A DNA stretch of 64,000 bases, taken from positions 1,206,750 to 1,270,749 of the forward strand of contig NZ_LT670846.1 of assembly GCF_900142435.1 (NCBI RefSeq). The letters run 5' to 3'. A model generated the notes under the pieces. The model was not told the DNA's origin. It saw nothing but the letters and a program-made list of their open reading frames with translations, and ran no database searches. Numbering within the stretch: the first letter of the stretch is position 1; every line of letters begins with the position of its first letter. Below are positions 41,777-45,508 of this stretch, one piece after another. This DNA is from Thermocrinis minervae (GTDB lineage: Bacteria > Aquificota > Aquificia > Aquificales > Aquificaceae). The position numbers and the translations under genes are program-made.

Positions 41777-42761
41777 TTAGCAGATATCTTATCACAAAGT
41801 TTCTTATGCTCTTGATGGGTTCTGAAAAGTATACCTTTATGGAGAAGTCTAGGAAGTACAGACCCCTGATGAGGGCCTTAAGGTCTTCCAGAGAGTAGAG
41901 CTGCATGTAGCGCTTAAAGTTATGCACCTGGAATGGATGTTTTACACCCACCGAAGACAGTGCATCCTCTACGGGCCTACCCCCCTCGGAGAGGGCTTTA
42001 GCTGTGTATAGCTTTAGGGCATAGCTGTCAAGCACAGCAAGCAACTGCAAGGGTTGTACACCACTTCTAAAAGCACTGTCTAAAGACAGCAGAGCCTTCT
42101 TAAGATCCTTCGTAAAGAAAGCCTCTAGGAAGTCAAATACATCCATCTGGAAGTTGGTCACCAGTAGCTTCTTTACATCTTCAAGGGTTATCTCCTTCTT
42201 TGGCAACAGCAGGAGCTTCTCTACCTCTCCCTTTAACCACATGAGGTCATAGTCTGTATGCTCTAAAAGGTAGTCAATGGCCTCTGGAGTTATCACCTTT
42301 CCCTCTTTCTGAAACCTTCCAACGACCAACTGCTTTACCTTATCCTTTGAAAGCCTTCTGGCTTCTACAATGTCACCTATCTTCGCTATAGTAGCCAGAG
42401 GTTCTTTAGCAAGATCCTGAGTTGTAAGTTTTTGGGAGAAGATCAAGAATACCACGTTACCGTTTAATTTTTGGGCCAGTTTTGTGTAAAAATCCTTGCT
42501 TTTAACTTTCTTCAACATATCCTCCGCCCTTCTTACTACGAAGACCCTTTGTTTACGTTCTCCAAACAACCCTCCCACCCTGAACTTATCCAGGAGAGTC
42601 TCCTCTGCTATCTCATCACCCCATAAGACCTCTACATCGAACTTAGACTTGAGCTTTTCTATAAAGTCCTTTATGAGGTACTCTTCCTCACCGTGGATTA
42701 CGTTTATGGGTTTTGGATGTGAGCTCTCTATCTGTTTTCTGTACTCTATTATGCTCTTCAT
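41736..42761 (-). CDS. holA: DNA polymerase III delta subunit
   Basis: 341-aa clamp-loader delta subunit. Sequence is weakly conserved in general; visible features are [19 protein letters not shown] near the N-terminus (the delta-type GEEYLIRE motif), [16 protein letters not shown]- and [34 protein letters not shown] as in HolA domain II, and the C-terminal collar domain. It opens the beta clamp for loading. Overlaps rho by 4 bp and hisB by 41 bp. Confidence 0.85.
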
Positions 42762-44044
42762 GAGTGCATGGCCTTTAGAAACTCCTTGTTGGTCTTGAAC
42801 TTTTTGAGCTTGTCCAGGAGGAACTCCATGGCCTCTATTGGATCCATGGTGGCCAAGAACTTTCTAAGGACCCATATCCTCTGAAGCTCCCAGTCTTCCA
42901 GAAGAAGCTCTTCCTTCCTAGTTCCAGACTTCTCTATGTTTATGGCCGGGAAGATCCTCCTCTCCATCAACCTCCTGTCTAAGTGTATCTCCATATTTCC
43001 TGTTCCCTTGAACTCCTCGTATATCACATCGTCCATCTTGGAACCTGTCTCTATGAGTGCAGTGGCTATTATGGTCAGTGAGCCACCCTCTTCTATGTTT
43101 CTAGCAGCACCAAAGAACTTCTTGGGTTTTTGAAGGGCTGTGGCTTCTATACCACCCGTGAGCACTCTGCCGGTGGGTGGAGTTATGGCGTTGGCGGCTC
43201 TACCAAACCTAGTCATGGAGTCAAGGAGTATGACCACATCCTGACCCAACTCCACCATCCTCTTTGCCTTCTCAACTACTAATTCCGCTACTTGGACGTG
43301 CCTTTCGGGAGCCTCGTCAAAGGTAGAAGCTACTACCTCAGCTCCATCCCCTACTATCCTCTTCATCTCCGTAACTTCTTCTGGTCTCTCGTCTATGAGC
43401 AGGATGATAAGATAGACCTCTGGGTGGTTCTGTATAAGGGCCTGGGCTATCTTCTGAAGGAGTACCGTCTTTCCTGCCTTTGGTGGTGCTACTATAAGAC
43501 CCCTTTGGCCCTTACCTATTGGTGCTATGAGGCTCACCACACGCGTAGATAGCTCCGTAGGGCTTGTCTCCAGGTTAAACCTTTCTGTAGGATGGAAGGG
43601 TGTGAGCTTCTCAAAGATGGGCCTAGAACGGAGCTTTTCTGGATCTGCTGGAAGTCCGTTCACAGATTCTATCTTTATGAGAGCCTGGTACTTTTCCCTT
43701 TCTTGTGGCTGTCTTGCAAATCCTATTATGGTGTCTCCTGTTCTTAGACCAAACTTCTTAATCTGGGAGGGTGCCACGTACACATCGGTAGAGCTTGGCA
43801 TGTAGTTGTTCTCAAGGCTCCTTATAAAGCCGTATCCTTCCGGTAGGATCTCCAACACACCTTTTACAAAAGACAGGCCCTCCTCCTTGGCCTGTGCCTG
43901 CATTATCCTCTCTATAAGATCTTCCTTCCTAAGGCCCGTTACCCTCGGAAGATCTAACTCCTTACCTATCTTCTGTAGCTCTGCCAGAGATAGCTTCTTA
44001 AGTTCTTCGTAGGTGTAAAGCTTTTTTTCCTCAGCCTGACCCAT
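42758..44044 (-). CDS. rho: transcription termination factor Rho
   Basis: 428-aa hexameric RNA helicase. N-terminal helix bundle (1-55) and OB primary RNA-binding fold ([21 protein letters not shown], about 71-91); Walker [12 protein letters not shown] (186-196); Walker [16 protein letters not shown]-loop and R-loop region ([28 protein letters not shown], about 282-309). Normal length. Rho matters here because 3' convergent overlaps leave no room for intrinsic terminators. A 105-nt structured leader precedes it. Overlaps holA by 4 bp. Confidence 0.98.
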
Positions 44045-44149
44045 TTTACAGACCTTCTGCCTTCAGAGCCTTATGGCTCTGGCTGGGGTATTTATATCCC
44101 GCCTTATTGGGCTTTTCCGACCCCAGCAGGCGGTTTTTGGAAAAGCCCA
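44045..44149 (-). ncRNA. candidate structured leader RNA upstream of rho
   Basis: Spacer between mnmE stop and rho start with unusually strong complementarity. S1 is a perfect 10-bp stem (44139-44148 with 44109-44118) with a 20-nt loop. In that loop CCGCCT (44128-44133) can pair with AGGCGG (44099-44104), and the adjoining GCTGGGG (44121-44127) with CCCCAGC (44082-44088). S4 is a 7-bp hairpin CAGAGCC/GGCTCTG with an ATAA loop (44064-44081), ending about 20 nt before the ATG. TATAAAT (about 44091-44097) could be an internal promoter. No T tract follows S1. The class is unknown to me; rho autoregulation or a riboswitch is inference. Confidence 0.55.
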
Positions 44150-45508
44150 TCACTTTCCTATGCAGAATCTGGAGAATATACTTCCCAAAACGTCCTCCGT
44201 GGCTATAGTTCCTACAAGCTCCTCCAAGTAATGTAAAGCCTCCCTTATGTACAAGGAAAGGACCTCGGGTGAGAGCTCCATACGTTGGAACAGTTCCACA
44301 GTTTCCTCTATCTTCTCTTTTGCCCTCTGTAATAGATCTGCGTGTCTTACAGACAGGTAGACATGCATGCTATCCGCTCCAAATACTCCCACTTTCTGTA
44401 AAACCCTTTCTTTTAGCTCCTCCAACCCCTGACCTGTTTTTGCACTCACCTTGATACCATCTGGAAAACGTTTGACTACCTCCTCGTTAATACCCAGATC
44501 TATCTTATTGAGGACTGGGATGTGATTGGTTTCCTCTATTAAATTATAGACCTCTAGGTCTATGCTTTCAAGGGGTGAGGAGGCATCCACCACAAAGAGG
44601 ACAAGGTCTGCTTCCCTTAACTTTTGAAGACTTCTTTCTATCCCTATCCTCTCTACCTCGTCAGAGGATTCCCTTATACCTGCCGTGTCTATCAAGTTTA
44701 CGGGTATGCCCTCCAGGTTCAGGCTCTCCTGGAGAAAGTCTCTAGTGGTCCCAGGTACTGATGTTACTATAGCCCTATCCTTCCCAAGGAGAGCATTAAA
44801 GAGGGAAGACTTTCCTACGTTAGGTTTGCCCACTATGGCTAGGTTTATACCCCTCCTTAGATACTCACCCTTCTTGACGGTAAAGAGTAGAGTATCTATC
44901 CTATCCTTCACCTCAAGGAGAGTCCGCAGTATCTGCTCCCTAGTTAGCGTTGGTATATCCTCTTCGGAGAACTCTATGTCAGCCTCCACGTAAGCACAAA
45001 GCTCTAAGAGCTTCTCCCTCAAGGGTGTTATATAAGAAGAGAGTTCACCTTTGAGTTGTCTGAGGGCACTCTCGTGTGCCAGTTGGGTTTTTGCCCCTAT
45101 TAGGTCTGCCACAGCTTCGGCTTGTAAAAGGTCCATCTTTCCGTTGAGGAAGGCTCTTTTGGTGAACTCTCCAGGCTGTGCAAGCCTTATACCGTTTCTA
45201 ACAAACAGCTCAAGGGCTGTCTTTAGTATAAAAGGGTTTCCGTGTAGGAAGAGTTCTAGCATGTCCTCACCGGTGTAGCTATTGGGAGCTTTGTAGTATA
45301 TGAGTATACCATCGTCTATGGGCTTTCCTTGTTCATCCACTAGCTCAAACCTGTGAGCGTACCTGGGCTTTATGCTACTCTTGGTTCTTATAAACCTACC
45401 TACCTTCTCAAGCAGACCCGTACCCGAGAGCCTAACCACTCCTATGGCGCTCTCTCCAAAAGGGGTAGCTATAGCTACTATAGGTTCTCTTTCCTTGATG
45501 TTACTCAT
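44150..45508 (-). CDS. mnmE: tRNA uridine-5-carboxymethylaminomethyl modification GTPase MnmE
   Basis: 452-aa GTPase acting with MnmG on U34 of several tRNAs. N-terminal tetrahydrofolate-binding domain (about 1-120), helical domain with embedded G domain: GKPNVGKSSLFNALLGKDRAIVTSVPGTTRD (P-loop and switch), DTAG, NKID; the C-terminal CIGK (FCIGK) with the functional Cys is intact. First gene of the mnmE-rho-holA-hisB cluster. Normal length. Confidence 0.97.
   Translation of the reverse strand: MSNIKEREPIVAIATPFGESAIGVVRLSGTGLLEKVGRFIRTKSSIKPRYAHRFELVDEQGKPIDDGILIYYKAPNSYTGEDMLELFLHGNPFILKTALELFVRNGIRLAQPGEFTKRAFLNGKMDLLQAEAVADLIGAKTQLAHESALRQLKGELSSYITPLREKLLELCAYVEADIEFSEEDIPTLTREQILRTLLEVKDRIDTLLFTVKKGEYLRRGINLAIVGKPNVGKSSLFNALLGKDRAIVTSVPGTTRDFLQESLNLEGIPVNLIDTAGIRESSDEVERIGIERSLQKLREADLVLFVVDASSPLESIDLEVYNLIEETNHIPVLNKIDLGINEEVVKRFPDGIKVSAKTGQGLEELKERVLQKVGVFGADSMHVYLSVRHADLLQRAKEKIEETVELFQRMELSPEVLSLYIREALHYLEELVGTIATEDVLGSIFSRFCIGK

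What the first reader, a model, noticed from the sequence alone, without database searches (positions are those of the whole stretch)
44045..44149. Pseudoknot-capable structured RNA in the leader of rho
Seen: on the minus strand between mnmE and rho there is a perfect 10-bp stem with a 20-nt loop. Within the loop a continuous 13-nt G/C-rich stretch has two halves, each complementary to separate downstream segments (6 and 7 bp) that appear in crossed order, so they form a pseudoknot or two exclusive alternatives. A further 7-bp hairpin lies just before the rho ribosome site. Known: Rho often regulates its own expression through its leader. Inference: a switch or autoregulatory element, possibly a new class. 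It resembles no riboswitch I can recall (fluoride, preQ1, SAM, c-di-GMP, THF were considered).
Basis: partly seen in the sequence, partly recalled or inferred. Interest (0 to 1): 0.72.

Follow-up and report, generated by a model that had tools for sequence, protein, structure and literature searches.

The report
TnpB guide-RNA core as mRNA leader
The knotted RNA in front of the rho gene is one of hundreds of copies of an uncatalogued RNA that heat-loving bacteria carry just before the start of ordinary genes; its core matches the presumed guide-RNA scaffold of a transposon nuclease (TnpB) that this genome lacks, so a piece of a transposon's guide RNA seems to have become a working part of normal messenger RNAs.

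Summary
The structure is real: a 10-bp stem S1, two crossing helices A and B, and a following hairpin P4. It is not a rho-specific switch. The genome has two more copies (mqnE, hpf). A covariance model finds the RNA in 94 of 136 Aquificota genomes, up to 35 copies each, and in thermophilic Firmicutes and others. Copies read point toward the next gene, start codon a median 37 nt after helix B'. S1, A, B and P4 all show compensatory changes; S1 and P4 do so among 11 orthologous htpX leaders. No Rfam 15 family matches. In Firmicutes and some Aquificota the same core is the 3' part of a long RNA at the 3' end of IS607-type tnpB genes, where published relatives place the TnpB guide RNA; those transposons sit between GGAGG and the start codon. 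The window genome has no detectable TnpB, and structure is kept in TnpB-free lineages, so short copies are not mere scars. rho and htpX leaders with the element have weaker Shine-Dalgarno sequences. Best reading: an exapted guide-RNA core serving as a 5'-leader module for translation. Structure, homology and TnpB independence are well supported; the translational mechanism is inferred. Ligand, partner and expression effect are untested.

The parts
44139..44148 (-). S1, 5' strand (GGGCTTTTCC)
   Evidence: sequence; 8 of 9 modelled S1 pairs show double changes over 61 copies
44129..44133 (-). helix A, 5' strand (CCGCC)
   Evidence: pairs with 44099-44103; C-G to G-C double change in other copies
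44121..44127 (-). helix B, 5' strand (GCTGGGG)
   Evidence: pairs with 44082-44088; third pair UA/CG/GC, seventh pair GC/UG
44109..44118 (-). S1, 3' strand (GGAAAAGCCC)
44099..44103 (-). helix A', (GGCGG)
44089..44098 (-). conserved A-rich linker GATATAAATA between A' and B'
   Evidence: T, A, A, A, T, A invariant or nearly so in 66 copies
44082..44088 (-). helix B' (CCCCAGC)
44064..44081 (-).
   Evidence: P4 covaries in orthologous htpX leaders
44053..44058 (-). weak Shine-Dalgarno-like AGAAGG of rho
   Evidence: anti-SD duplex -5.7 kcal/mol against mean -11.45 in rho leaders without the element
42758..44044 (-). rho, downstream gene
   Evidence: ORF; rho protein matched in all 64 family genomes
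44150..45508 (-). mnmE, upstream gene; its stop codon lies 1 nt before S1
   Evidence: ORF; gene name from the finding and the protein's conserved GTPase and FCIGK tail (sequence, own knowledge)

Best explanation
The element is a solo copy of the guide-proximal core of an IS607-type TnpB guide RNA (omega/reRNA) that now works as a 5'-leader module of ordinary mRNAs. Proposed history: an IS607 transposon inserted between the Shine-Dalgarno sequence and the start codon (published TnpB target motif AGGAG). Its 3' end, which carries the RNA core, stayed fused to the gene while tnpA, tnpB and the old Shine-Dalgarno were lost. Proposed working: at the 5' end of the mRNA (or behind an operon neighbour, as at rho) the RNA folds into a compact knot in which S1, A and B form together and an A-rich linker packs along them, with P4 directly before a weak RBS; the knot sets how the ribosome reaches that RBS. 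Shown by computation: structure, homology to the tnpB-linked RNA, position, persistence without TnpB, weaker SD at rho and htpX. Inferred: the history, the simultaneous tertiary fold, and action on translation initiation.
For: Same core by covariance model in leaders and in tnpB-linked RNAs. Long copies lie at the 3' end of a TnpB-like ORF, one with a MerR+resolvase tnpA, with GGAGG/GGAG at the left end and spacer plus start codon at the right end, matching the AGGAG TAM of published IS607 TnpB (PMC11061315). G000 has no TnpB detected. Structure kept with compensatory changes in TnpB-lacking genomes and in orthologous htpX leaders. Strict position before start codons, -10 boxes just upstream of S1. 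Weaker SD in rho and htpX with the element.
Against: No expression data. Weak SD may be only a relic of the insertion. TnpB-linked identity of the long RNA as a guide RNA is inferred, not shown, and it gives no Rfam RAGATH-18 match. Direction of descent was not tested with a tree. Gene functions form no single pathway.
Confidence: 0.55

Rival explanations
1. A ligand- or temperature-sensing switch: the conserved linker and loop form a pocket (or melt on heating), and RBS access changes accordingly.
For: Strongly conserved single-stranded linker and loop bases, pseudoknot fold, leader position, heat-shock genes htpX and hsp20 among the targets, only thermophile-rich groups.
Against: No conserved expression platform: no terminator or SD-sequestering helix shared by copies was found; targets span unrelated pathways; the linker is equally conserved in tnpB-linked RNAs, so its conservation can be structural.
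Confidence: 0.17
2. A 5' stabiliser of mRNA: the knot at the transcript's 5' end blocks decay from that end.
For: Promoter boxes place S1 at or near the transcript start; very stable fold; housekeeping genes.
Against: RNase J, the usual 5' exonuclease, has no match in G000, G051 or G018; at rho and other operon genes the element is internal; does not explain the strict distance to the start codon or weak SDs.
Confidence: 0.15
3. Capture in the other direction: an old cellular leader element was taken up by IS607 elements as part of their guide RNA.
For: Leader copies are more widespread in Aquificota than this TnpB (94 against 48 of 136 genomes); helix B is most diverged in G155/G156, which have no PF07282 match above cut-off.
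Against: Insertion between SD and start codon explains the leader positions without extra assumptions; intermediates exist: full transposon, full RNA without complete tnpB, core only.
Confidence: 0.2
4. Neutral scars: leftover transposon ends that cannot be deleted because they adjoin the gene start.
For: Position matches the transposon's insertion site; copy number varies strongly between relatives; some copies lack P4.
Against: Compensatory changes accumulate in vertically inherited htpX leaders, 97% of cells paired, and in TnpB-lacking genomes, 98.4%; unselected scars would lose pairing.
Confidence: 0.05
5. Orphan guide RNAs acting in trans with a TnpB, their guides being the 5' ends of the downstream genes.
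For: Same core as tnpB-linked RNAs; stand-alone long copies exist (L099, L110, L191).
Against: G000 has no TnpB detected by three searches; short copies lack the CCAGG boundary and the 5' hairpin that abut the guide; G052-G055 have 8-14 such TnpBs but no R1 core (G057 has one marginal).
Confidence: 0.04

Closest known systems
RAGATH-18-derived reRNA of IS607 TnpB (Ren et al. 2024, PMC11061315)
   Same: Long copies lie just 3' of an IS607-type tnpB; AGGAG-like site at the left end; a 5' hairpin loop can pair with the last bases before the flank (like PK2); pseudoknotted scaffold.
   Different: No Rfam RAGATH-18 match; the RNA overlaps the TnpB ORF, theirs does not; TnpB lacks a visible CxxC ribbon; the window copy has no tnpB, no 5' hairpin and no CCAGG boundary.
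TldR, nuclease-dead TnpB with guide RNA used for gene control (named in PMC13418256)
   Same: Host use of TnpB-derived parts for gene expression.
   Different: TldR keeps the protein and acts in trans through a guide; here only the RNA is kept, in cis, and G000 has no TnpB.
Pseudoknot riboswitches (preQ1, SAM-II type; own knowledge)
   Same: Small pseudoknotted leader RNA with an A-rich linker close to the RBS.
   Different: No common pathway among targets, no shared expression platform, several to 35 copies per genome before unrelated genes, no Rfam match.
Rho autoregulatory leader (own knowledge)
   Same: Lies in a rho leader.
   Different: The same RNA precedes dozens of other genes and is absent from most rho leaders of the family.

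Membership tests
IS607 TnpB guide RNA (omega/reRNA) | same RNA core as in RNAs at the 3' end of IS607-type tnpB genes | tested here: met
   R1 finds both with E 1e-17 or better; tnpB ORFs
IS607 TnpB guide RNA (omega/reRNA) | tnpB next to the RNA, or in the genome | tested here: not met
   window copy lies between mnmE and rho; no TnpB in G000
IS607 TnpB guide RNA (omega/reRNA) | 5' hairpin whose loop pairs with the bases before the guide, and a 3' boundary followed by guide | tested here: not met
   present in long forms, absent in the window copy
IS607 TnpB guide RNA (omega/reRNA) | binding to TnpB and guiding DNA cleavage | not testable with these tools
   needs biochemistry
RAGATH-18 (Rfam) | covariance-model match | tested here: not met
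   no match at E<=10 in the window or E<=5 in six long-form loci
TldR-type exaptation | nuclease-dead TnpB in the genome | tested here: not met
   G000:
Riboswitch | targets share a pathway related to a ligand | tested here: not met
Riboswitch | specific ligand binding | not testable with these tools
   needs probing
Rho autoregulatory leader | specific to rho and conserved at rho in relatives | tested here: not met
   3 of 30 rho leaders; other genes
Cis-acting structured 5' leader | sense position just before start codons and covarying structure in orthologous leaders | tested here: met

The most novel reading that the evidence does not exclude
Thermophiles have repeatedly domesticated the core of a transposon nuclease's guide RNA, without the nuclease, as a portable 5' leader that takes over the Shine-Dalgarno task in starting translation of housekeeping genes: an IRES-like element in bacteria.
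Probability: 0.25. Interest if true: 0.95.

Novelty: new variant of a known kind. Interest (0 to 1): 0.82.

Why it matters
An RNA that is not in Rfam precedes ribosomal-protein, hfq, ftsH, rho, htpX and other genes in many Aquificota and in several other thermophile groups, so part of their leader biology has gone unread. If it is an exapted guide-RNA scaffold, it is a case where a transposon nuclease system gave rise to cis-acting gene control through its RNA alone. It also makes a question directly testable: how do these mRNAs start translation when the strong Shine-Dalgarno is gone?

Tried and rejected
Rfam at gathering and relaxed thresholds: nothing at the element. Literature: no description found in Brewer 2021 (PMC8632094; found passages and one section read) or in the novel-ncRNA sections of the Aquificales study PMC4227106 (supplement not readable); other paper searches without a match. 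Only open-licence papers are held, so prior description elsewhere is possible. RNase J barrier: no match in G000, G051, G018; only a trace in G037. Rho-specific autoregulation: rejected. SD sequestration by the mnmE end in G000 (fold): I saw no equivalent at G051 or G050 rho by eye; judged incidental because that mnmE stretch is coding. TnpB in trans: rejected for G000. Failed or uninformative calls: wrong frame (56), wrong regex (51), pattern rule (37), search word rule (28), coordinate errors, report format (104). One viral contig hit, a tnpB-linked copy.

Full report
CHECK. The finding's geometry is exact. On the minus strand S1 is 44148-44139 with 44118-44109, A is 44133-44129 with 44103-44099, B is 44127-44121 with 44088-44082, and P4 is 44081-44064. 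rho starts at 44044 and the mnmE stop ends at 44150. The order S1-A-B-S1'-A'-B' makes all three helices mutually crossing. Rfam has nothing there, at gathering or, apart from unrelated chance hits, at E<=10. The nested fold alone is moderately unusual (z -2.76).

NOT A RHO ELEMENT. A DNA search of the genome gave two more places, 79-80% identical over about 66 nt, with different but paired S1 stems. Their downstream genes are MqnE (TIGR03700) and HPF (TIGR00741). Among 30 Aquificaceae rho leaders compared, only G000, G051 and G050 have it; nearly all others have a short spacer with a strong AGGAGG-type SD. A Thermovorax rho gene also has it (L265).

FAMILY. A pattern search found about 110 copies in 38 of 64 Aquificaceae genomes; the reversed control pattern gave none. 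A covariance model (R1, with S1 as its only helix) found 50/64 Aquificaceae and 94/136 Aquificota genomes, 24/30 genera, up to 35 copies (G051 by size may be Thermocrinis albus, my inference). R1 gives 1-27 copies in 21 genomes reached this way.

STRUCTURE UNDER SELECTION. (i) 33 diverse copies: 93.3% of cells paired, against 40-53% when slid. (ii) 61 distinct copies from genomes without a match to the cognate TnpB: 98.4%, covariation score 0.407 against 0.119 in shuffles. In helix A one pair changes from C-G to G-C; in B, pair 3 is CG/UA/GC and pair 7 is UG/GC. The alignment was fitted to S1 only, so the A and B counts are not favoured by it. (iii) Orthologous htpX leaders of 11 genomes of one genus (phoH-htpX locus in the two loci read), aligned by MAFFT: 97% paired, 10 pairs with double changes (7 in S1, 3 in P4), reached by 0/500 shuffles; A and B do not vary there. 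Related rows can inflate shuffle tests; the slid controls and the repeated changes argue against that being the cause. In G155/G156 helix B is wholly different in some copies yet paired.

POSITION. In the Aquificota copies read, a downstream ORF on the same strand starts 8-49 nt (median 37) beyond B', with two exceptions where none was found. TATAAT-like hexamers cluster just upstream of S1: 37/93 copies, against 12 in each of two control windows and 12.6 +- 3.2 in shuffles, so the leader is often nearly the whole 5' UTR. Genes named by NCBIfam in G051: Hfq (two paralogues), S18, L25, S20, L32, S11, GlyA, Ndk, PorA- and PorB-like, FtsH, fructose-6-phosphate aldolase/transaldolase, thioredoxin, IlvC, Ppa. 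Elsewhere: Hsp20-type, ACP, MreB, EF-G, IF-3, HtpX. There is no single pathway.

LINK TO TnpB. In Firmicutes the conserved unit is far longer (at least about 350 nt). It starts inside the 3' end of a 400-510 aa ORF and ends in TTTGGGTAACCAGG, after which sequences differ. One copy has a tnpA with MerR and resolvase domains. The ORF has a weak Cas12f1-like TNB match (E 0.002-0.005, below cut-off); by eye it has RuvC-like motifs but no CxxC. Some Aquificota have the same long form, others the full RNA without a complete tnpB. Left ends abut GGAGG or GGAG in L126, L130, L147, L164 and L191, and the right flank is spacer plus start codon. This agrees with the AGGAG TAM of the IS607 TnpB with RAGATH-18 reRNA (PMC11061315). 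That the long RNA is a TnpB guide RNA is inferred from place and resemblance, not shown by experiment.

INDEPENDENCE OF TnpB. The cognate TnpB is in 48/136 genomes but not in G000, G051, G018, G015 or G008; G052-G055, same genus as G051, have 8-14 copies yet no R1 match. G000 has no PF01385 match and only one sub-cutoff PF07282 hit, in a 740-aa ORF. G018 has one PF07282 fragment. G051 has five other TnpBs (PF01385 and PF07282), none beside a core. Of the htpX genomes, G038, G044 and G047 lack both this TnpB and PF01385.

SHINE-DALGARNO. Predicted anti-SD pairing (kcal/mol): rho with element -5.7, -4.6, -8.1; without, mean -11.45 (n=27; the one weak value, L032, looks like a mis-called start). 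All 92 short-form genes: mean -5.4 (start codons picked automatically). htpX: -6.5 with (n=11), -9.95 without (n=11, one of them a spurious ORF), p=0.003. Either the knot takes over part of the SD's task, or weak SDs are a relic of insertion; this is the main open point.

VERDICT. Observation confirmed; rho-switch reading replaced. Estimates: real structured RNA family 0.98; homologous to the tnpB-linked RNA 0.9; functional without TnpB 0.85; transposon-to-leader direction 0.75; acts on translation initiation 0.55. The rivals given are not all mutually exclusive (direction of descent is a separate question from function), so their confidences do not sum to one.

Noticed in passing
L126, L130, L147, L164, L191: IS607-type transposons with this RNA sit exactly between GGAGG/GGAG and the start codon of a gene, in sense orientation, so their right flank (the presumed guide) covers gene starts.
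   Followed up: partly
L034, L102, L109, L203: TnpB-like ORFs with RuvC-like motifs but no visible zinc-ribbon cysteines and only a weak Cas12f1-like match; the frame runs into or through the RNA core.
   Followed up: partly
G052-G055 against G051 (same genus): 8-14 TnpB copies and no R1 match in four genomes, no such TnpB and 35 cores in the fifth; the former probably have a diverged RNA.
   Followed up: no
L251 (Caldanaerobacter metK): The long RNA directly abuts what looks like a 5'-truncated SAM riboswitch before metK, as if the insertion had cut it.
   Followed up: no
L049, L082, L083 (G029); L040, L100, L101 (G017): Near-identical long copies within one genome before unrelated genes: recent spread.
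   Followed up: no
L273-L277 (G155, G156): Deeply diverged short copies with replaced B helices in two metagenome genomes without a TnpB domain match above cut-off; one precedes a conserved ORF starting MKLKKVKIYQLATDIV in both.
   Followed up: no
L064 and L077 (G051): Both hfq paralogues of one genome carry the leader.
   Followed up: no
L333: A 173-kb contig filed as viral (IMG/VR) carries a tnpB-linked copy.
   Followed up: partly
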